In this document: in pieces, positions 1 through 26,192 of the stretch
Numbering within the stretch: position 1 is the first letter of the stretch
Layout: every line of letters begins with the position of its first letter
From: a virus
Strand: one strand, 5' to 3'
Length of the DNA stretch: 26,192 bases
IMG/VR virus record: IMGVR_UViG_3300036466_000044
Span: 1 to 26,192 of that record
Made by a program: the position numbers and the translations under genes
Notes under the pieces: generated by a model
Databases searched by the model: none
Told to the model about the DNA's origin: nothing
What the model saw: the letters and a program-made list of their open reading frames with translations, nothing else

Positions 1-3000
1 ACTTTCTATCTTTGCACCTTTGATCACAGGCGCACTAATCTCAGTACCAGCTATAAGCCTATCACCAGCAACAGTGCCTTTAGCGACAATAGAGCCATTA
101 ACTTGCAAGGCTACAGTTACCCAAGAAGAGCCATTAAACTGCCTAGCTTGAGAGTCAGTACCATCAACTCTTGTCTGAGTGAAGATGTCTCCACTAACAG
201 GGTCGCGACCTACTAGGGCACTAAAGAGGCTGTTAGCTGTTGATGTTGTCCATGAGATAGCTGTGTATGTGGATCCGTAAAATCCTGCTCCTGTTGCACC
301 ATCCTCGGCTGCACCAACTCTACCAACTGCTATGTAGTCTAAGTCAAACGTCCGTATACCCCGACCTCTTGGAAAGTCGATACGTAGACCACTTATAGTG
401 CTTGTGATCCAGTCATCTCCTCCGTTTGTTAACTCTCTCATATCAAAATTAATAGTTACCCACTCATTTTGAGGAAGAGTTACTGGAGAGATCAGCTTTT
501 TATATGCTTCTTGCCATCCGTGAGAACTTGTAACATAGAATATTTGGGCATTTGTTGAAAACGTTTCCCCTTTATTCCTGACCCTCATTGATATTATACT
601 ATCTTTTGAGCCATCTACTGATAAACCCCCCCGAATTATCTGAGTGGTACTATCCTGTGTCGTTAACTCAATATACGTGGCTTTTTGTTCCCAAGTCATA
701 TCAACAAGGTCCCAACCTGAAAGTCCATTTGTGAAGTCATAGTTAAGTGTTGCCACTATACTTTCGGCATCTTTACCCGCTTCACCATCATCCCCTTTAA
801 ATCTCGACCAAGTATAATCCCCCTTTACATCAGATTCTGTAGGAGTTAGCCTATTAGGTGCGATACCTATATATAAAGTATTCTCATTAGGCTCTTGGTA
901 TAAATCAGTACCATCTGCAAAGTCTGAGTAAGCTATCCAAGTGTAGTAAGTTGTACCATCTTCACCTGTATCACCCTTCACGCCATCAGTACCTTTGATA
1001 AGTGACCAAGTGTACAAGTTAGGATCGTTAAGTTCTATAGGACTTGCCTGATTATATGCAAAACCAATGTATTCTTTATTGGTTGGAGAGTTACTTATGC
1101 CACCTCCACTAGATGTATCAGCATAGCGTATCCAAGTATAGTAAGTTGTACCATCTTCACCATCCTGTCCCGCTACACCCTGTGGACCTTCGTCACCTTT
1201 TATAATATATTCAGCAGGAGCAGACCATCCACTTTTCACCCAACTTCCATTGCTTTGTTGTGAATATTTTGTTGTTGAAATATAAGTGATTGCACCTTCT
1301 GCAAAATAAGGGGTATCTCGCCAACCACTAGGGAATGTCTCTGTTGTTCCATTGAATGTACCACCTGTCGGTAAAGGTGGTGTTCCTGTAGAAGATGTTT
1401 TGTAAACGTTACTTACAAAAGAACCATCTAGGCCATCAAAGTAATCTATACCTTTGATAGGTGTGTATCCCTTTTCCCCGTTAGATACTGTTACACTATT
1501 TCCTGCGCCATCTGTGATTGTATATGTACCATCACCATTATCAGTAGCAGTAGGTATAGGTGCATCCTCTCCATCAAAGATAGTTGCAGTCTCTGTACCA
1601 TTTGTGATTGTGTATGAACCATCTGGGTTGTTAATTATTTCAGGAGTTGCGCCTGTTATCCTTGAAAGATCTCTCCATGAACTTCTCACACCATTGGTAA
1701 CTGTAGCTGTGCGTCTGAATATATCTCCAGTAGTATAATCATCGTGCCAGTTTGTTGACCCATCTACAGAATATTGATAAACCTCATAGATAGTATCTCC
1801 ATCTAAAGCACGTATATCATCTTCCGACTCAACAGTGTATCCGCCTACAACAACATTTCCCGTAAATACCCACTTGTTCAAATCCGCTCTATACTGTAAG
1901 GCAGGGTTTCCAGCGGAGTCATCAAACTGAACCACATCACCTTGAAACCGTAATCCATTTGTAGATGAGTCAGCGGTAATACCTGTGACTATGGTTTTTC
2001 CATCTACAGTGTTACTTACACCAAGGTATGCTCTACTTGACACAACACCTAGCTCATCAACAGTAGAATCTAATAATAATTGTGCATCAGATACTTCACC
2101 TTGAGTGTTAACCACTTCTGTCTCAAGTGCAGCTAATGATTGGGCTGTTCCATCTGCTTTTGCGTCAGTATTTAGTATAAAAGTTGCATTGGCATCCACT
2201 TGACCTTCTATAGTACCAATAGATGCAGAAAGTTCTGTTATCTGTTGTGCAAGTGCTTGAGAATCGTTTGCAAGAGTTTTAGTCTGTGTATCTATTGTAG
2301 CAATAGAATCTCCTAAAGTCAAGTCTCTGTTACGTTGATCAAGGAGTTTTAATTCAGTGTAAAATTGAGCTTCTTCTAAATCACCACTTTCTATTTGAAG
2401 ACGGTTAATACTTAACAATTGTGTACGAATACTTGCACCGTCAATAGTACTAAGTTCTTGGTTGATAGTGTTAATACTTCCATTAAGACCTTCTAACTGA
2501 TCATCAATCCCCCCCTCTTGCGCGTTGAAGCTAGTGAGGGTGGTTGTTATGTTGGCCTCTGCTGCATCTACCCAAAAGCTTGCAGTATTAGCTTTACCAA
2601 TAGTTCCTTGCTCGTTTAGTACATTCTGGGTAGCCTTCAAAGATATTATAGCTTCCTCACCATCTAACACTTGGGTTACGTTGTTAAGTGTTACCGAGTT
2701 TTCATCGTAAAAAGTTGTTGTTACAAAGCTAGTAAGCTGACCTTCAATAGCGTTTACATCTATACCTAATTGGTTAACTTGTGCTGTAATACCATCAAGG
2801 GCTTCTAATTGTGCAGAAGGCTTACCTATTGTAATACTTTGTATTTCGAATTCATCAGATACAGATCCACCAAGGATTAATCTTAAACCTGTTACTGTTC
2901 CTGTGTAAGAAGCTTCTTCTGCTAAATTTAAAATTTTAACACTTGTTCCGTCTAAGGGTATGTCTTCTATAACACCAGTATAAGTTTCAGCAGAGTTATC

Positions 3001-3891
3001 ATCAAAGAATACAATTAAATCCCCAGTGTAACCAACACCACTTGTTCTAGCTACTGTTAGTGTTATTACGGGATTATCATCTGCCGAATAAGAAAGTGTT
3101 TGATTTTCAATATCACCCCATGTAGTAAGTATCTTACTATTACCTTGAGTGATAGCACCATTTACCGCAGACCAACCTTCTGATGAGTTGAAAAATCCAA
3201 AAGAGTAAGCTGGGATAACTGCATCAAGAGCACCGCTTACATATTCTGTCATCTCTGTGTAGCTTGCTTTAATCTCCACCTGACCTGCAAGCACTTCTAT
3301 ACTTGAATTTGCATCTTGAACAGAATTACCTAAATCTACAATCTTTCCAGCATTAATACTAACCTTCGCATCTACACCATTAATCAAAATACCTGCTTGG
3401 GTGAATTGAGTATCTGTGTAAGAGTAAGCTTTTAGGTTGATTGTACCATTTTCAGGATTAACCTCAAAAACCGCATTAGTGATATCATTTTCAAACTCAG
3501 AAGTCTTTCTTCTAAATTCAGCTAAAGATGCTGCTGTGTCGAATAATGCGCGATCTGACTCTTTACGGCTAAGAACCTCTAAATTTAACTGAGGTTTAAA
3601 CTCTCCATCAATAAAATCTCTCATTGCAAGAATATCATCTATTGCGTTGTTAGTTTCTTCTCTTAGGTCGTCAACTTCTGAATTTATACCGCCAATAATA
3701 TTAATAACTTCTTCTTGGTTATTTTCTATTATCTTAATAATTTCATCTGTTTGATCACCTGCTTCAACATAATCACTGATAGAAGATGCCATAATTGTAA
3801 ACATTTCGTCATTCGGGTTATTACCGTCACTAACATCTAACTCTGTTATTCTCTTTAAATTTGCAACAAAATCTGTCAATGATTGTGCCAT
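1..3891 (-). CDS. Tail fibre / host-specificity protein (J-like, DUF1983-like), 3' end beyond window
   Basis: One uninterrupted minus-strand frame of 1297 codons starts at 3891 (AGGAG five bases upstream of ATG) and leaves the window at base 1, so the C-terminus is missing. The first 150 residues are acidic and helical (SDYVEAGDQTDEIIKIIENN). A long region of short beta and helical segments follows, with alternating 'LTSFVT' and 'SIGTIEGQVDANATF'-type stretches. Around 2040-1840 there is a segment like the DUF1983 domain at the end of lambda-type gpJ proteins (GLRFQGDVVQFDD, then WVFTGNVVVGG). The part after that holds repeated modules with KGDTG-like linkers and a lectin-like sandwich region. 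It is the last gene of the tail cluster seen here, directly after the gp138-like gene. The role in receptor recognition is inferred from position, size and repeats; the gene itself is certain. Confidence 0.88.
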   Translation of the reverse strand, partial: MAQSLTDFVANLKRITELDVSDGNNPNDEMFTIMASSISDYVEAGDQTDEIIKIIENNQEEVINIIGGINSEVDDLREETNNAIDDILAMRDFIDGEFKPQLNLEVLSRKESDRALFDTAASLAEFRRKTSEFENDITNAVFEVNPENGTINLKAYSYTDTQFTQAGILINGVDAKVSINAGKIVDLGNSVQDANSSIEVLAGQVEIKASYTEMTEYVSGALDAVIPAYSFGFFNSSEGWSAVNGAITQGNSKILTTWGDIENQTLSYSADDNPVITLTVARTSGVGYTGDLIVFFDDNSAETYTGVIEDIPLDGTSVKILNLAEEASYTGTVTGLRLILGGSVSDEFEIQSITIGKPSAQLEALDGITAQVNQLGIDVNAIEGQLTSFVTTTFYDENSVTLNNVTQVLDGEEAIISLKATQNVLNEQGTIGKANTASFWVDAAEANITTTLTSFNAQEGGIDDQLEGLNGSINTINQELSTIDGASIRTQLLSINRLQIESGDLEEAQFYTELKLLDQRNRDLTLGDSIATIDTQTKTLANDSQALAQQITELSASIGTIEGQVDANATFILNTDAKADGTAQSLAALETEVVNTQGEVSDAQLLLDSTVDELGVVSSRAYLGVSNTVDGKTIVTGITADSSTNGLRFQGDVVQFDDSAGNPALQYRADLNKWVFTGNVVVGGYTVESEDDIRALDGDTIYEVYQYSVDGSTNWHDDYTTGDIFRRTATVTNGVRSSWRDLSRITGATPEIINNPDGSYTITNGTETATIFDGEDAPIPTATDNGDGTYTITDGAGNSVTVSNGEKGYTPIKGIDYFDGLDGSFVSNVYKTSSTGTPPLPTGGTFNGTTETFPSGWRDTPYFAEGAITYISTTKYSQQSNGSWVKSGWSAPAEYIIKGDEGPQGVAGQDGEDGTTYYTWIRYADTSSGGGISNSPTNKEYIGFAYNQASPIELNDPNLYTWSLIKGTDGVKGDTGEDGTTYYTWIAYSDFADGTDLYQEPNENTLYIGIAPNRLTPTESDVKGDYTWSRFKGDDGEAGKDAESIVATLNYDFTNGLSGWDLVDMTWEQKATYIELTTQDSTTQIIRGGLSVDGSKDSIISMRVRNKGETFSTNAQIFYVTSSHGWQEAYKKLISPVTLPQNEWVTINFDMRELTNGGDDWITSTISGLRIDFPRGRGIRTFDLDYIAVGRVGAAEDGATGAGFYGSTYTAISWTTSTANSLFSALVGRDPVSGDIFTQTRVDGTDSQARQFNGSSWVTVALQVNGSIVAKGTVAGDRLIAGTEISAPVIKGAKIES
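780..1167 (-). repeat. Two tandem protein-level modules in the fibre gene
   Basis: Two copies of a module of about 65 residues occur in the fibre, at about 1167-970 and 969-780. Each begins EDGTTYYTWI, contains a YIG(F/I)A segment about 20-25 residues later and ends YTWS followed by a KG-D-G linker. They are similar rather than identical in DNA. Such repeats are common in fibre shafts and can vary in number by recombination. Confidence 0.8.
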
Positions 3892-16682: not shown

Positions 16683-18128
16683 TCACATTCCGTGTAATGA
16701 CTTTTGGTATTCTTGTTGTAAGATATCCTTTATCTTATGGTAATCTGCGTGACTGTAACATTCTGTCCAACCATCACTGAATTTTTCTCTATCAACTGTA
16801 ACTCTATCGAACAAGGGTTTCAACATAGCTTCAATTGCAGGAGGAGTTTCTCCGTTTTCAAAGTGATACTCGTCTAAGATAATACCTTCGTAATCTTTAC
16901 TATTTCTACTTTGATTTTCTAATCGGGTTATTGCACCAAGATTGGTTATACCTACTTTTAGAAAACTGGGTTCACCTGTTAAAGTGTTCAACCATATAGA
17001 AATGTAAATACTTCCTGCAAGGTGTGACTTGTAACCATTAGCTTTGCAACAAGGACAACCTTTACCTAGTCTTACGTTACTATAAGCAATAGGGAACGGT
17101 TTATTAGTAACAGGGCAGAGGAATCTTATAGGAGTATTGTTATTGACATAGTCATCAATTCTTGTATAAAGTACACCCTTTGCTTTTAATTCGGCATCCA
17201 CTTCTTCATTAGTAAGTCTTTGTCTTTCACCAGCAAGTTTAGCACTACATTTAGAACAGAAGTGAGCTTTCTTGTATAAAGTTCTAGTACCTAAAGGTTG
17301 CATACCATGTTCTTCACAGAACACTTTGACAAACTTTTTGTTGAAATCTTCTCTAGTGACGTGTTCTGTAGGATAATTACGTTCTTCCATTCTAAGTAAA
17401 AAATCTTTGTATCTGGTTTCGTTTATCTTATCTTGTTTAACACATCCGCAGGAGGATTTATGTATCTGGTTAGAACTTTTCATAAAGTAAATCTTATTTT
17501 TACATTTACATTCTATAAAATAACCTTCTACCCCTTCCCTAGATAAGCCCCTACCTAAGACTAAATTTCCATTCACCAAGTCACCAGAAAAATATTTTAA
17601 ACGTCTACCTTCTTCAGGTAAAAATTCTATATCTCCTAATTGATAAAACCTATCTACTCTTATGTGGTCACCCTTTTTAAGAGTCAATATTCTTTGTTTT
17701 TGAGCACATATTTGGCAACCATTACCGTGTTGGTGGTGATCTGCTACAATAGGGAAATAATCTTTGCATGTATTACAAAACACTTGAATAATTTCTCTCA
17801 CACCGTTTAAAGATGTGATTTCCGTGTAATCATACTTATCACCGTGGACGGATTTACATTTGTGTATAAAGTCTCCTACTTTTAAAAGTTTTTTGCTTAC
17901 CCTTATAGCTTCGTTACATTGTTTACAGGGTGTGACAGCTTTAGTGAATAAAGACCCGTGGTAAACTGTACCTACCACTCCATGTTCTTTACAAGTAACC
18001 TTTAAATCTTTATCCAACCACTTATAGATATCTACATCATATAAAGGGTAATCTGGGAAAGTATCTTCATACTTTTGTAAAAACTTCTTGTATCTGGTGG
18101 GGTGATTGTGTAATAATTCTCTCTTCAA
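16683..18128 (-). CDS. Free-standing endonuclease-like protein: zinc-finger repeats plus GIY-YIG-like domain
   Basis: A 481-residue protein inserted between the major capsid gene and the unknown gene. The first 330 residues contain several Cys/His-rich repeats of the DUF723-like type: V-x-C-x-x-H-G followed later by C-x-x-C (for example LKVTCKEHGVVG with CKQC, then KYDYTEI with CQIC, then VKVFCEEHGMQ with CSKC, then CPCC). After residue 365 comes GSIYISIWLNTL and FLKVGITNLGAITRLENQS, then a conserved acidic helix (PPAIEAMLKPLFD). This resembles the T5orf172/GIY-YIG-type nuclease fold (Y-I ... K-V-G-I-T ... R). A homing endonuclease role is likely but not proven. The start is TTG at 18128, ten bases after AAGGAG. 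Confidence 0.82.
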   Translation of the reverse strand: MKRELLHNHPTRYKKFLQKYEDTFPDYPLYDVDIYKWLDKDLKVTCKEHGVVGTVYHGSLFTKAVTPCKQCNEAIRVSKKLLKVGDFIHKCKSVHGDKYDYTEITSLNGVREIIQVFCNTCKDYFPIVADHHQHGNGCQICAQKQRILTLKKGDHIRVDRFYQLGDIEFLPEEGRRLKYFSGDLVNGNLVLGRGLSREGVEGYFIECKCKNKIYFMKSSNQIHKSSCGCVKQDKINETRYKDFLLRMEERNYPTEHVTREDFNKKFVKVFCEEHGMQPLGTRTLYKKAHFCSKCSAKLAGERQRLTNEEVDAELKAKGVLYTRIDDYVNNNTPIRFLCPVTNKPFPIAYSNVRLGKGCPCCKANGYKSHLAGSIYISIWLNTLTGEPSFLKVGITNLGAITRLENQSRNSKDYEGIILDEYHFENGETPPAIEAMLKPLFDRVTVDREKFSDGWTECYSHADYHKIKDILQQEYQKSLHGM

Positions 18129-18244: not shown

Positions 18245-19285
18245 TTAAACTGTGAACGAATATACACAAACCATATCAGATCTCGTATTAACGGCACATA
18301 GCGACGATTCACTTTCTATCACTTCTTTACGCTCGTCACCTTTAATGAAAAGGTAACCCTCTGAGATAGCTTCTTCACGATTTGCGCCAGCGATAGTGTC
18401 TGAATGACCATATACAAGTTTAAACATATCATCAACACCACGAGGGAAGAAGTAACCAGCGTCTGCTGCAATCTCACCACTTACGTCTTCAAGGTAAGTG
18501 ATACCCTGCCAGCGAAGTACACGGCCTGTAGAAAGACCACCTAAACGTTGACGTAAAGGCTCTTCTTGTGATGCGTAGTTAGCGAATGCTTCAACGTAGT
18601 CAGTGTGGTTCTTAAGCGCTGTGAAAGCATCAGTACCAAGGATACCTACGATTTCATAATTATCACCTAAATCACCAGCTTTATCGAACACATGCTTACG
18701 AACTTTTTCAAATTCATCCGCTGGGTTACTTGCTTGGTCTGTTAAGTCATAAGTTGCTGCACCACCTGCTGCACCATTATACATATCAGCATTTGGAATT
18801 TCAAACATTGCTTGGAAAGAACGTTGAAGGTTAGGACGAGGATTACCATTTGCATCTACTGCATAAGTCGAACCTTTAAGTGCTTGGTACATAACTTTCT
18901 GGTGAAGTTTAGCATGAGACTTTTGAATACGTGCAATAACACGAGCAGCCTTTGAGCGAACTGTCTCAGGGTCTTGTGCTGTAGCAAACTCACGAAGAGA
19001 TTGTACATCTTTTGGCTTGATAATTTTATCTAATGTGAAGAATGGGATCTCTACCCACGCTGTACGCGCTTCATCATCACCAGCTACTTGACGGTCTGCA
19101 CCACGAGCAACTGAATACATGTTATCCATACCAGAAACGATACGTTCAAATGCAACAACACTCTCATCAGAATATTCTACATCAAATAAACCCATTTTCT
19201 CAAGCATGTTCTCAACACGTGGAACTAGTGTCATTAGTGGTGTAAAGTTCTGTAAACCTTGATCACCTAAGCGTAAATCTGCCAT
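18245..19285 (-). CDS. Major capsid protein (lambda gpE-like)
   Basis: A 346-residue protein of the Phage_cap_E type. Recognisable parts are the N-terminal PLMTLVPRVENMLEKMGLFD, the DKIIKPKDVQSLREF segment (the usual 'I-x-P-x-D-x-q' loop), the long helix AARVIARIQKSHAKLHQKVMYQALKG, the central DLGDNYEIVGILGTDAFTAL, and the C-terminal GYFFPRGVDDMFKLVYG segment. It forms the HK97-fold capsid shell. It follows the decoration and protease/scaffold genes in the same order as lambda C-Nu3-D-E. AAGGA precedes ATG at 19285, and a terminator follows the stop codon, as expected for a highly expressed gene. Confidence 0.93.
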   Translation of the reverse strand: MADLRLGDQGLQNFTPLMTLVPRVENMLEKMGLFDVEYSDESVVAFERIVSGMDNMYSVARGADRQVAGDDEARTAWVEIPFFTLDKIIKPKDVQSLREFATAQDPETVRSKAARVIARIQKSHAKLHQKVMYQALKGSTYAVDANGNPRPNLQRSFQAMFEIPNADMYNGAAGGAATYDLTDQASNPADEFEKVRKHVFDKAGDLGDNYEIVGILGTDAFTALKNHTDYVEAFANYASQEEPLRQRLGGLSTGRVLRWQGITYLEDVSGEIAADAGYFFPRGVDDMFKLVYGHSDTIAGANREEAISEGYLFIKGDERKEVIESESSLCAVNTRSDMVCVYSFTV

Positions 19286-23020: not shown

Positions 23021-24136
23021 TCATCGGATAGACTTGCGGTAAGAGGTGTAAGCTGTTGGAGAAGTGGTGTCTGGGAGGCTGTAGACGCGGATTACCCTTT
23101 CTTTGGATAGGAAGTTGTAAGCCGAAGCTATAGCATCTGCAAAGTCATCCTTTTTGGTTTTGGTTGATCTTTCACCATCAAAGTTTTCCAACTGTTTCAT
23201 TATATGGTTGTAAGTATTCTCTGAAAAAGTAGACTTAACTATCTTAATCAAACCATTCTCTGCACTTGTTGCAAAAGGTAAGAATTTGGTAAGTTTATTC
23301 TTTGTGATAGGCATAGGATCTTTTTTATAAATATAACCCTCTTCTGCAAAATACTTAGCTTGTTGTGCCCATAATGCCTTACCCGCAGCAGCAGGGTCTT
23401 GCGGGGAAATAAGGTAAACTTCTGAACCGTCAAATTCAGCTTGCTTCAACATTACTCTATCCCTCTCACCAGAACTGAGATACATTGCACCTTGGATGTC
23501 ATCTACTTTGTCATAAAAGTCTTCGTGATAGTCTCCCATTAAAGTATAATACCCATCTTTACTTTTGTGCATTTTTATACTTACTGTTGGATCGGGATTC
23601 TTATTTGACATAGTTCTTTCAGATGCTCCGAAATCGTATGCCCTAACAGTGAGACCATCCGTAGGTACTTTATCTACGTGGTCTATCCAATCACGCTTAA
23701 AGTATTTACTCCCGAATGCAAATTCTGCCCAACAACCATGTAAAAGTTGAGCTTTATCTATTTCATTCAAACCTTCTAGGAAGCCGAGGTACGCTGGGTT
23801 GCTCTCAATCATCGGAGGATTATCATAAATATTTGCACTCACGAAACTGAAAGATAGTATTAAGTTTTCCCAATCTTTTTCAGGGATATCAAATCTTGTA
23901 CCTAATTCTTCTCTGGTTTCTCCCCATACATATTCACCGTCTCTTTGTAGGAAATACCTAACTAAACCATCCTTTTTAGGGTCAGGGTATCCGTCCTCTG
24001 TCAAGTAGAATGAGATCATTTTCTTAATCTCATGAGAGGGTGACGGGTTACAAGAAATAACCATACGGGAAAAATGTTTTGATTGTGATCTGAGTCGAGA
24101 CATGAAGTATTCTATCTGACTCCATTCGAATTGTGT
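23021..24136 (-). CDS. Terminase large subunit, exon 3 (nuclease part)
   Basis: The last exon of the large terminase, 371 residues and a stop. It starts at ACA (24136) after the terminal G of the intron, giving GIDEG|TQFEW, the normal Walker B continuation. Residues 26-33 (VISCNPSP) are the coupling motif. The RNase H-like nuclease follows, with AYDFGASE (Asp168), SPQDPAA (Asp247) and KKDDFADAIASA (Asp330, Asp331 and Asp334) as the metal-binding set. It cuts the DNA concatemer during packaging. A naive gene call would start at TTG 24139, which is intron sequence. The gene ends 17 bases before the -35 of the portal promoter. Confidence 0.93.
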   Translation of the reverse strand, partial: TQFEWSQIEYFMSRLRSQSKHFSRMVISCNPSPSHEIKKMISFYLTEDGYPDPKKDGLVRYFLQRDGEYVWGETREELGTRFDIPEKDWENLILSFSFVSANIYDNPPMIESNPAYLGFLEGLNEIDKAQLLHGCWAEFAFGSKYFKRDWIDHVDKVPTDGLTVRAYDFGASERTMSNKNPDPTVSIKMHKSKDGYYTLMGDYHEDFYDKVDDIQGAMYLSSGERDRVMLKQAEFDGSEVYLISPQDPAAAGKALWAQQAKYFAEEGYIYKKDPMPITKNKLTKFLPFATSAENGLIKIVKSTFSENTYNHIMKQLENFDGERSTKTKKDDFADAIASAYNFLSKERVIRVYSLPDTTSPTAYTSYRKSIR

Positions 24137-24390
24137 CAATTGTGTTCAAAGATGTTTGCAAGTCATCTTCCGCCTATTGTGGCTGCTCTATGTCGCCATA
24201 GAAGTTCAGACTATATCATCACCTGTTCTAGGTGTCCCGCGCTTCCACAACCATTAGCTTGTTGTGTACTCCTTTTCAGGATAGTCGTTGCACGGTCTCT
24301 TTCGAGCTTCGCTCAGGATTACCTACTAGAGGCTTCCCCTGAATTCACGGGATTTGCTAAATGTATTCCTACATTAAGGGGCTACAATTA
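24137..24390 (-). ncRNA. Group I intron 2 of the terminase gene (Walker B site, no ORF)
   Basis: A compact 254-nt intron. The 5' splice site is GATGAGGGT|TAATTG: exon GGGU pairs with guide GCCC (24379-24382), U.G at the splice site. The 3' end is ACAATTG|ACACAA. All core elements are close to consensus: P (AATTCAGGGGAAGCC, 24331-24345), Q (AATCCTGAGC, 24311-24320), R (GTGCAACGACTA, 24282-24293) and S (GATATAGTCTGA, 24206-24217), with P7 formed by GACTA/TAGTC. Splicing joins codons GGT and ACA in frame. The short plus-strand frame over this intron is chance. Confidence 0.94.
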
Positions 24391-24726
24391 ACCCTCATCT
24401 ATACCAACAAAAGTCCATTGCAAACCTTGGGCATTTAGTTTACTTTGTTCTACATTTTCTGCTTGTTGATATTTTATCTTGGCACCATTATAACTACGCC
24501 TACCTTTCTCATCTTTAGTAGGAAATATAACTTCTAGGTCACCTGTTTTAATCTTTGGTCTTATATTATGAGGGAGCTGATTGTATATTCCACAACCTGT
24601 ACTAAATATACCACCTGCACCTTTTATCTGGGGATTAGTTCTACGGAACATTACCATTTCCGAATTGGGGTCATCTATTAACATTAAAGGGATCATTTGC
24701 AATAGATAACTTTTTCCTGAACCAGC
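24391..24726 (-). CDS. Terminase large subunit, exon 2 (ATPase part)
   Basis: A 336-nt exon of 112 codons. It begins AGSGKS, the end of the Walker A P-loop; the upstream glycines come from exon 1. It continues YLLQMIPLMLIDDPNSEMVM, FRRTNPQIKGAGGIF (usual 'R-k-t-x-x-x-l-r-x-s' element), the EVIFPTKDEKGRRSYNGAKI segment, and ends LQWTFVGIDEG, the Walker B motif with catalytic Asp-Glu. The open frame begins at ATG 24729, but that ATG is the last triplet of the intron. The stop seen at 24388 is the first intron codon. The motor ATPase drives DNA into the procapsid through the portal. Confidence 0.92.
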
Positions 24727-25056
24727 CATTTTCAGGATCGGTTTTAGAGGCGTTACTCTCTTTCCACAGTTTCCTGTGTTGTCGGATCATATCTTCTATG
24801 TTATAACATAGCCCTACGTTTGGAAGTCACTTGACTCCTACATCGTTACACTCATCACGATTGATCTCTACACCCATGAATTTAATCATTCGGCTCGATA
24901 TTAGCTTATGCATCACACTTAGCCTTCATCGAATTAGCAGGGTTATTTAATGTGGAACCACTGGATTTTTAAGCTCCACCTATAATTGTCACCTGTGTAT
25001 CAGAAGCCCTTTTAAGAATAAGAGCTTGCTTCTCGCTGGCGGGTTTGAAGAGCGGT

Positions 25057-25944
25057 TCACTCTTCTTTTTCTTTGTCATTCTTTTTATCCTTTATTAATC
25101 TATTATATTTAATACCTAATTCTTTCCTTTTACTTTGTACTGTTGTTCTTGATAAGTTTAGTAAAGATGAAACTTGTTTAGTAGTTAAACTTGTATCTTT
25201 TATTAAAAATAATTCAGCTTCTGTCCACTCTCTTTTGGAAACCCAAGACCCTTGTTTTACAGCAGGAATATTAAGTTCCCTTCTTTTACTAGTTACACGA
25301 GTTAAAGGGATATTGAATTTTTCCGATAAACTGGAATCACTTTCTATACCTAGTAAGTTTACAAGTTCTTTAGAGAGATTATATTCGGGAGATTTGAATT
25401 TGGGGATTTTTAATAACTTCCTCCTATCACTTATAGAAGAAGTGGATATACTTATAAAATTAGACAGGTCTTTATCAGACATAGTACCTAGTAGGTTATC
25501 GTGATCTGTCCAATCGAACTTATTAGCTTTTACGTAGGAAGGTATTCCTGCCCCTTTTCTTCTACTGGAAACTATATCAATACTGGTACTTGTCTTTTCC
25601 GCTACAACTCTATCGGGATACTTTCCTAAAAGTTTATTCCATCCATCTTTCCATTTAACTTTAGTTGCACCATCACCTCCTAATGTGATATTATACCCAT
25701 TAGGTGACACAGTGTTGAATTTTTCTATGGCCTTCACTTCTAACTCATCTATGTACTTGTCTTCTCCACAAACTAGCAAGTCGAAGATAAAGGTATCAGA
25801 CCCGTACTTCTTAATTGCACTTTTAAGGACACTGCAGTTAGTATTCATACTTTTGTGCTGTGACCATCTTCTTTCAGGATCTATAGTAACACCTATGTAC
25901 ATTTTATTGTTTAAGGTGTTGGTAATCTTATACAACCACTTCAA
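25057..25944 (-). CDS. Intron-encoded GIY-YIG homing endonuclease
   Basis: A 295-residue protein within terminase intron 1. Residues 1-90 are a GIY-YIG domain: LYKITNTLNNKMYIG (Tyr5, Tyr16-Ile-Gly), Arg25/Arg26 and His30 in RRWSQHK, Glu69 in ELEVKAIEKF, and GYNITLGG. The first 'GIY' reads W-L-Y, a tolerated variant. Residues 100-285 hold four repeats of about 45 residues of the type 'L-L-G ... S-x-x-x-I ... K-R-R-E-L-x-I-P', which look like helix-turn-helix or Myb-like DNA-binding units. The start is TTG at 25944, five bases after GAGGAG. A sigma-70-like promoter lies about 50 bases upstream. It probably cleaves intronless terminase genes at the P-loop sequence. Confidence 0.92.
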   Translation of the reverse strand: MKWLYKITNTLNNKMYIGVTIDPERRWSQHKSMNTNCSVLKSAIKKYGSDTFIFDLLVCGEDKYIDELEVKAIEKFNTVSPNGYNITLGGDGATKVKWKDGWNKLLGKYPDRVVAEKTSTSIDIVSSRRKGAGIPSYVKANKFDWTDHDNLLGTMSDKDLSNFISISTSSISDRRKLLKIPKFKSPEYNLSKELVNLLGIESDSSLSEKFNIPLTRVTSKRRELNIPAVKQGSWVSKREWTEAELFLIKDTSLTTKQVSSLLNLSRTTVQSKRKELGIKYNRLIKDKKNDKEKEE

Positions 25945-25991
25945 AACATCTCCTCATAAAATTAACATTATTAAACTATTCCCATTACCCA

Positions 25992-26020
25992 ATACTACCA
26001 CACCATCTCAACAAAGTCAA
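25992..26020 (-). promoter_or_regulatory. Possible promoter for the GIY-YIG gene inside the intron
   Basis: Minus strand TTGACT (26015-26020), 17-base spacer, TAGTAT (25992-25997). It begins one base inside the proposed intron, and is well placed to transcribe the endonuclease gene independently of the terminase. Confidence 0.55.
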
Positions 26021-26190
26021 CACCTCCACTTGCAACTAACCTTACGCCAAAAAGCAGCTATCCTCACAAAAGAATAATTTATAAAAGTTTTTACTTTACA
26101 AAGTCCACACTCTTTCATAAGTTGTTTATAATATTTGTGAATGGTGATCTTATCATAACCGTCCAATCCGTGAGAATGTCTATACATCTG
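26017..26190 (-). other. Open frame at the right edge, identity unresolved
   Basis: A frame open from the window edge to a TGA at 26019-26017 reads MYRHSHGLDGYDKITIHKYY and onward to FINYSFVRIAAFW. It overlaps the terminase segment in a different frame. If one T is removed from the TTTTT run it continues as FVRIAAF into GVRLVASGG, so it could be the terminase N-terminus with a frameshift. It could equally be the end of another gene or part of an upstream intron. I recognise no family. Confidence 0.4.
26022..26057 (-). CDS. Terminase large subunit, coding segment before the Walker A intron (partial)
   Basis: Twelve codons, LLFGVRLVASGG, end at the proposed 5' splice site and supply the first glycines of the Walker A motif, with the hydrophobic strand (V-R-L-V-A) that normally precedes it. 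An in-frame TAG at 26060-26058 closes the frame upstream, and no ATG, GTG or TTG start is available. The rest of the N-terminal region must therefore come either from an exon further upstream (another intron ending near ATAG|CTG) or from the neighbouring frame through a one-base shift at the TTTTT run (26050-26054). Confidence 0.7.
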
Positions 26191-26192
26191 GC

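What the first reader, a model, noticed from the sequence alone, without database searches (positions are those of the whole stretch)
23021..26057. Terminase ATPase split at both Walker A and Walker B by group I introns
Intron 1 separates the glycines of the P-loop (SGG|AGSGKS), and intron 2 follows immediately after the Walker B Asp-Glu-Gly (GIDEG|TQF). Both sites are the most conserved DNA in the gene, as expected for homing targets. No active packaging motor can be made until both are removed, so splicing may set the timing of packaging. Only intron 1 carries an endonuclease gene.
Basis: partly seen in the sequence, partly recalled or inferred. Interest (0 to 1): 0.72.

Follow-up and report, generated by a model that had tools for sequence, protein, structure and literature searches.

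The report
Twice-interrupted phage DNA-packaging motor gene
A phage carries two self-splicing RNA inserts inside the two ATP-handling motifs of its DNA-packaging motor gene, next to a separate DNA-cutting gene that probably helps the first insert spread; the same arrangement is already known in the cholera phage ICP1.

Summary
The core observation holds: two group I introns interrupt the terL gene on the minus strand, one inside Walker A and one directly after Walker B. The anatomy of intron 1 was misread. Its true 5' exon is 25079-24972 (ends IIGGA), so intron 1 is 245 nt (24971-24727) and splits GGA|AGSGKS. The 'SGG' near 26040 is an out-of-frame reading of another ORF's end. The GIY-YIG endonuclease gene (25944-25057) lies upstream of terL, not in the intron; neither intron carries an ORF. 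Intron 2 is 24390-24137 (DEG|TQF). Removing both gives a 519-aa TerL that aligns without gaps across both junctions to the uninterrupted TerL of Vibrio phage RYC. P1 and P10 covary across 17 related introns.

The same Walker A intron, with a free-standing endonuclease gene directly upstream, is in ICP1, where others showed splicing and named collaborative homing. In my panel 17 of 18 Walker-A-intron genes have such a neighbour, of at least four nuclease kinds; a 95%-identical phage has an HNH gene in place of the GIY-YIG gene and both introns. So this is a new member of a known kind. The timing idea has no support here.

The parts
24972..25079 (-). terL exon 1 (36 codons, ends IIGGA)
   Evidence: gapless match to uninterrupted TerL of Vibrio phage RYC; AAAGGA stretch upstream of the ATG
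24727..24971 (-). group I intron 1, 245 nt, no ORF, splits Walker A GGA|AGSGKS; starts U|UAA, ends G|
   Evidence: RF00028 47.7 bits; P1/P10 covariation in 17 homologues
24952..24979 (-). P1: exon 24979-24972 (GUGGAGCU) pairs with internal guide 24959-24952 (GGUUCCAC), U.G at the splice site
   Evidence: compensatory A-U / G-C / U-A at one pair
24960..24964 (-). P10 strand CCAGU, pairs with the first bases of exon 2 (GCUGG, 24726-24722)
   Evidence: 17 of 17 paired, A-U to U-A in 2
24391..24726 (-). terL exon 2 (112 codons, AGSGKS...GIDEG)
24137..24390 (-). group I intron 2, 254 nt, no ORF on the coding strand, DEG|TQF; starts U|UAA, ends G|
   Evidence: RF00028 92.3 bits; the same site holds an intron with an endonuclease VII gene in phage JES2013
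23021..24136 (-). terL exon 3 (371 codons plus stop; rest of ATPase domain and RNase H-like nuclease domain)
   Evidence: Pfam Terminase_6N/6C, phrog_979
25057..25944 (-). free-standing GIY-YIG homing endonuclease gene (295 aa), directly upstream of terL, overlapping its start by 23 nt
   Evidence: PF01541 E 6.6e-11; an HNH gene takes its place in the 95%-identical phage L004
26017..26192 (-).
   Evidence: L005 2423-2848

Best explanation
terL is a three-exon gene interrupted by two small ORF-less group I introns, one inside Walker A and one just after Walker B. Each intron folds, uses guanosine to cut after the U of its U.G pair, and joins the exons to give a continuous 519-aa large terminase. 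The presence and boundaries of the introns are shown by sequence, and for intron 1 by covariation; splicing in this phage is inferred, and the related ICP1 terL intron was shown to splice by others. Intron 1 most likely moves by collaborative homing. A free-standing endonuclease gene, whose end lies 85 nt from the insertion site, would cut intron-less terL of a co-infecting phage at the P-loop codons, and repair would copy endonuclease gene and intron together; the intron then shields the carrier's own site (all inferred). The endonuclease gene is interchangeable: unrelated nucleases occupy the same slot in relatives while the intron stays (shown by comparison).
For: Spliced TerL aligns without gaps across both junctions to uninterrupted RYC TerL, 61% identity. 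RF00028 hits. P1 and P10: 97.3% of 221 cells paired, 8 cells changed on both sides, 0 of 500 shuffles reach the covariation score, and slid controls reach at most 0.071 against 0.131; the consensus fold has 32 of 44 pairs with double changes. The Walker A intron recurs in 19 phages counting this one, including ICP1. Endonuclease gene directly upstream of terL in 17 of 18 of these with readable upstream sequence, against 5 of 17 TerL genes without a Walker A insertion, Fisher one-sided p 8e-5. L004 against the window: both introns kept at about 95% identity, endonuclease gene different. Splicing of ICP1 terL by RNA-seq, RT-PCR and Sanger sequencing, and the collaborative-homing reading: PMC10448857 section 21.
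Against: No RNA data for this phage. Intron 1 scores just under the Rfam gathering cut-off (47.7 against 50). The endonuclease's cleavage site is unknown; nothing shows that it cuts at the P-loop. The association is not corrected for phage relatedness: most intron-less comparators come from other lineages, and five of them also have an endonuclease gene in that slot. One intron carrier (L089) has none. In L008 and L010 the only in-frame splice leaves an intron ending in A rather than G, unexplained. The exchange of endonuclease genes fits HEG turnover without any collaboration equally well.
Confidence: 0.8

Rival explanations
1. HEG turnover: intron 1 once carried its own endonuclease ORF, lost it, and is now an immobile but harmless passenger; the upstream slot is a separate hot spot visited by any endonuclease gene that targets the packaging region.
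For: At least four unrelated nuclease kinds use the same slot; the slot is also occupied beside terL genes without a Walker A intron (L007, L048, L090, L091, L104); proposed as an alternative in PMC10448857.
Against: 17 of 18 carriers have the endonuclease gene directly beside the short exon 1, more than the comparators. The intron sits in very divergent TerLs (27-35% identical to the window's, e.g. L020, L038), which suggests that it still spreads.
Confidence: 0.35
2. One reading: intron 1 is about 1.3 kb, runs from about 26040 and carries the GIY-YIG gene; its exon 1 ends SGG.
For: Reading by eye; the GIY-YIG ORF does lie just before the ribozyme core.
Against: TerL sequence EPLFKPASEKQALILKRASDTQVTIIGGA lies between the GIY-YIG ORF and the core and matches RYC TerL. 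P1 forms with GUGGAGCU at 24979-24972. The 'SGG' letters are out of frame in a separate 141-aa ORF. L004 has another gene in place of the GIY-YIG gene and the same intron.
Confidence: 0.01
3. Splicing acts as a timer or sensor that delays assembly of the packaging motor until late in infection.
For: Both introns start with an in-frame UAA (15 of 17 Walker A introns have a stop within three codons), so no motor is made without splicing. Authors on TerL inteins have proposed modulation (PMC5050341, passages).
Against: No measurement here. Early stops may equally serve to keep ribosomes out of the ribozyme core (recalled idea, no call). In SIOphi only spliced terL RNA was seen in the time course (PMC11878797, passage). 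The relative RYC does without either intron.
Confidence: 0.05

Closest known systems
Vibrio cholerae phage ICP1 terL (gp129/gp128) with free-standing tcgB (Barth, Dunham and Seed 2023, PMC10448857)
   Same: Same intron family at the same Walker A codon, 82.6% over 84% of the query; intron without an endonuclease gene; endonuclease gene directly upstream overlapping exon 1. ICP1 tape-measure gene has three introns with an HNH gene in the middle one, as it seems here.
   Different: ICP1 TerL is only 28% identical; its upstream endonuclease is of T5orf172 type, not GIY-YIG; its terL has two exons, with no intron at Walker B.
Vibrio phages qdvp001 and 1.187.O
   Same: Walker A intron at the same site; endonuclease gene upstream (GIY-YIG in 1.187.O); qdvp001 also has a Walker B intron.
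   Different: qdvp001 intron 2 lies two codons earlier (D|E); 1.187.O has further introns at about aa 180 and 253 instead.
Bastillevirinae terL introns (SIOphi, phiAGATE; PMC11878797)
   Same: terL split by one to three group I introns; splicing shown (passages).
   Different: Bacillus phages, another TerL family; nucleases listed there are intron-encoded; the insertion motifs were not read by me.
Mycobacteriophage TerL inteins (PMC5050341)
   Same: Splicing elements placed in P-loop, Walker B and C-motif of TerL (passages).
   Different: Protein-level inteins, not RNA introns.
T3/T7-like and cyanophage collaborative homing (Bonocora and Shub 2009; Zeng et al. 2009; seen only as cited in PMC10448857)
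   Same: Intron beside a free-standing endonuclease gene.
   Different: There, as cited, the endonuclease cleaves at the intron insertion sequence; here this is untested.

Membership tests
Group I intron | Conserved ribozyme core matching the covariance model | tested here: met
   RF00028: intron 2 92.3 bits (cut-off 50); intron 1 47.7 bits, E 2.1e-9, slightly below cut-off; intron 1 family fold 32 of 44 pairs with double changes
Group I intron | P1 with U.G at the 5' splice site, P10, terminal G | tested here: met
   Intron 1: U.G and P10 in 17 of 17 homologues, terminal G in the window; L008 and L010 lack the terminal G. Intron 2: U at the 5' site and terminal G in the window; its P1 was only judged by eye
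Group I intron | Removal restores the host reading frame | tested here: met
   519 aa, gapless across both junctions against RYC
Group I intron | GTP-dependent self-splicing | not testable with these tools
   splicing of the ICP1 terL transcript was shown by others
Collaborative homing pair | ORF-less intron beside a free-standing homing endonuclease gene | tested here: met
   GIY-YIG gene 25944-25057, outside intron 24971-24727; differs independently of the intron in L004
Collaborative homing pair | Endonuclease cuts intron-less allele at the intron insertion site | not testable with these tools
   no cleavage data
Collaborative homing pair | Recurrent linkage across phages | tested here: met
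   17 of 18 against 5 of 17, not corrected for relatedness
Terminase large subunit (Terminase_6) | Walker A, Walker B and RNase H-like nuclease domain in the spliced product | tested here: met
   GGAAGSGKS, GIDEG; Pfam Terminase_6N and 6C, phrog_979

The most novel reading that the evidence does not exclude
The Walker A intron is a shared shield used by many unrelated homing endonucleases. The first 36 codons of terL plus the gene before them form a cassette in which GIY-YIG, HNH, T5orf172 and endonuclease VII genes replace one another, each adapted to cut the same P-loop codons, while one intron protects the carrier and travels with whichever endonuclease is present. The P-loop of the packaging motor would then be a common battleground for introns (three registers seen) and inteins (two seen).
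Probability: 0.35. Interest if true: 0.55.

Novelty: new member of a known kind. Interest (0 to 1): 0.35.

Why it matters
It adds a two-intron case to the ICP1-type terL arrangement. It also gives a natural pair of 95%-identical phages that differ in the endonuclease gene but not in the introns, which makes the open question in the ICP1 work (collaboration or turnover) testable. The panel also shows that phage annotations often miss the first terL exon.

Tried and rejected
First-reader exon 1 (SGG near 26040): rejected by frame, homology and the L005 contig. The option that exon 1 ends GGTGGAG|CT is in frame, but it breaks the U.G rule and shortens the P-loop against RYC; rejected.

'Most conserved DNA' claim: a first test on 11 uninterrupted TerL genes, L100 included, gave site A a weak rank (20-nt windows: 17.8% of windows at least as high). 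L100 proved to have an intein-like insert in its P-loop, so I dropped that row and repeated on 10 (rank 61 of 1537); both results are told. Site B fades in windows of 30-40 nt in both tests.

A search from RYC TerL in viral contigs gave one distant hit, not used in the panel. The 16-nt intron pattern gave 18 stretches, of which 5 were terL introns and 13 unrelated; the second pattern gave 8 stretches, all terL introns.

Association count, rows left out: L097 (record starts inside exon 1), L018 and L103 (record starts at or near terL), L015 (near copy of L014), same-contig or near-identical loci (L006, L024, L039, L040, L041, L042, L044, L059, L060, L065, L066, L070, L072, L085, L086), Walker A insertions of other registers or kinds (L013, L055, L073, L077, L078, L080, L081, L084, L093, L100) and L074-L076. 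L011, L016, L019, L046, L047, L049-L053, L056, L057, L061, L062, L064, L067, L068, L071, L079, L082, L083, L087 and L088 were not assessed; the panel is not exhaustive. Of the left-out rows, L077, L080 and L075 also have endonuclease-type ORFs upstream; L013 and L073 show none by reading. The viral-contig retrieval used a Walker B peptide as a pattern, so that set was not used for the conservation test.

Exon skipping (exon 2 is 336 nt, in frame) was considered: intron 1's P10 strand fits exon 2, and by eye not exon 3, so no support. No structure prediction was run.
Full report
WHAT IS THERE. The window is a 26,192-base virus record, a piece of a tailed phage with portal and tape-measure genes on the minus strand. 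The terminase large subunit gene runs from 25079 to 23021 in three exons. Exon 1 (25079-24972) ends IIGGA; exon 2 (24726-24391) begins AGSGKS and ends GIDEG; exon 3 (24136-23021) begins TQFEW. Joined, they give a 519-aa protein. It aligns without a gap over both junctions to the uninterrupted TerL of Vibrio phage RYC, 61% identical. Pfam Terminase_6N/6C and PHROG 979 support the identity.

THE INTRONS. Intron 1 is 24971-24727 (245 nt) and intron 2 is 24390-24137 (254 nt). Both match Rfam RF00028, both follow a U and end in G, both begin with an in-frame UAA, and both lie between codons. Neither contains an ORF of 60 aa or more on the coding strand apart from exon pieces. For intron 1, 17 homologous introns were aligned with their exons (the window is represented by its near-identical contig L005). 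P1 pairs exon GUGGAGCU with guide GGUUCCAC, U.G at the cut. At one pair the exon base and the guide base change together: A-U in 10, G-C in 4, U-A in ICP1, with 2 unpaired. P10 pairs exon 2 GCUGG with CCAGU in 15 and GCAGG with CCUGU in 2. The covariation score is 0.131 against 0.052 in shuffles (0 of 500 as high) and at most 0.071 in slid controls. RNAalifold finds 44 pairs, 32 with double changes. Against this, at a neighbouring P1 pair four sequences have a G-A mismatch.

Those letters are out of frame at the 3' end of a 141-aa ORF, seen whole in contig L005, which is 99.97% identical over the overlap. The true exon 1 lies after the GIY-YIG ORF. That ORF (25944-25057, PF01541 E 6.6e-11) ends 23 nt inside the terL start and 85 nt before the insertion site of the intron.

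RELATIVES. In viral contig L004 the terL region is 95% identical and has both introns, and identity resumes at 25949-26192, but the stretch between holds a NUMOD4-HNH gene and a 103-aa ORF instead of the GIY-YIG gene. The Walker A intron at the same codon is also in Vibrio phages 1.187.O, qdvp001, P018-4, 1.161.O and 424E50-1, Pseudoalteromonas phage PH357, ICP1, and contigs L020, L021, L032, L037, L038, L043, L054, L069, L089, L092. With L004 and the window that makes 19 phages, counting L038/L039 and L069/L072 once each. Some of these TerLs are only 27-35% identical to the window's.

ENDONUCLEASE GENES. Eighteen of the nineteen have readable upstream sequence. In 17 an endonuclease-type ORF is the next gene upstream: GIY-YIG in the window, L008, L020, L099, and by PHROG in L032 (an ORF cut by the locus end) and L069 (SegE type); NUMOD4-HNH in L004, L021, L043; other HNH in L037 (112 nt from exon 1) and L038; T5orf172/phrog_681 in L010, L054, L092, L095, L098; endonuclease VII in L096. 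L089 has only a 95-aa ORF there without a family. Of 17 TerL genes without a Walker A insertion, 5 have such a gene (L007, L048, L090, L091, L104) and 12 do not (L009, L012, L014, L017, L045, L058, L063, L094, L101, L102, L105, L106). Fisher one-sided p is 8e-5. The two groups differ in lineage, so this is an association, not a proof.

OTHER SITES. In the same TerL family, introns also sit at Walker B in two registers (DEG|T in the window, L004, JES2013, L079, L043; D|E in qdvp001, L077, L091, P018-4), at the CNP motif, at YD|NP, and near LLHG. DNA around five such sites is more conserved than random positions in 10 uninterrupted TerL genes (p below 0.002 at all four window widths), but sites A and B are not consistently the top of the gene. 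Walker A itself is hit in further registers: GG|AAGSGK in Rheinheimera phage Barba4A, with RF00028 at 43 bits, and GGAAG|SGKS by reading in L073. Inteins also use it: L032 has a LAGLIDADG-bearing insert at AGSGK|S in addition to the intron five codons upstream, and PWH3a-P1 has an intein-like insert at SAG|SGKS, judged by eye, without a Pfam match at E 0.01.

WHAT IS KNOWN. Barth, Dunham and Seed (PMC10448857; abstract, outline, section 21 in full and passages seen) showed by RNA-seq, RT-PCR and Sanger sequencing that ICP1 terL is spliced, noted that its endonuclease gene lies beside exon 1 and not in the intron, named collaborative homing as one reading and HEG turnover as another. An ICP1 review (PMC9040626, passages) describes tcgA and tcgB flanking the capsid module. 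Bastillevirinae phages have terL genes split by introns, some by two or three (PMC11878797, passages). TerL inteins in P-loop and Walker B are known (PMC5050341, passages). Insertion of introns and inteins in conserved sites is an old observation (PMC2814812, passages). A search for group I intron with terminase and Walker A found no paper in the held library. I did not read all papers listed, so I make no claim that the co-occurrence of intron and intein in one P-loop is new.

MECHANISM. Splicing restores the motor gene: boundaries are shown, the reaction is inferred from the family and from ICP1. Mobility: the ORF-less intron and the neighbouring endonuclease gene most likely spread together; linkage is shown, cleavage is not. 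The L004 pair shows that the endonuclease gene can differ while the introns stay, which turnover predicts and collaboration allows. A timing role for splicing has no support here.

VERDICT. A rightly suspected but partly mis-drawn case of a known arrangement. New member of a known kind; interest 0.35.

Noticed in passing
window 10489-6631 (minus strand): The tape-measure gene appears to be split by three group I introns (RF00028 at 9384-9133, 8193-7960, 7888-7571) with an HNH endonuclease ORF (8840-8091) in the middle one; the two internal exons look very short. Same layout as the experimentally shown ICP1 tape-measure gene.
   Followed up: partly
window 16683-18128 (minus strand): A 481-aa phrog_681 endonuclease ORF follows the ORF at 18245-19285, which looks like the major capsid gene by eye; [quoted passage not shown]
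   Followed up: no
L032 3479-2216 (minus strand): One terL P-loop carries both a group I intron (GGA|A) and, five codons on, an intein-like insert with a LAGLIDADG domain (GK|S); exon 1 also has an in-frame TGA.
   Followed up: partly
L013 1147-1522 and sister records: Rheinheimera phage Barba4A terL is annotated as starting after the P-loop; the true exon 1 seems to be the 'hypothetical' gene before it, separated by an unannotated group I intron at GG|AAGSGK. 112 Rheinheimera records match intron 1 by blastn.
   Followed up: partly
L100 994-2964 (PWH3a-P1): terL ORF of about 657 aa with an intein-like insert at YGGSAG|SGKS in Walker A; no Pfam match at E 0.01.
   Followed up: partly
L074, L075, L076 (L075 about 2970-3010): In L075 terL has a stop and a frame change exactly at the P-loop (FIGG* then ACGGGKS) without room for an intron; an HNH gene lies upstream. 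L074 and L076 have the same match pattern but were not read.
   Followed up: no
L008 3361 and L010 3000: In these two Walker A introns the only in-frame splice leaves an intron ending in A instead of G.
   Followed up: no
Walker A introns of 17 phages (alignment A3): 15 of 17 have an in-frame stop within the first three codons of the intron, where about 13% would be expected per intron by chance; this may keep ribosomes out of the ribozyme.
   Followed up: no
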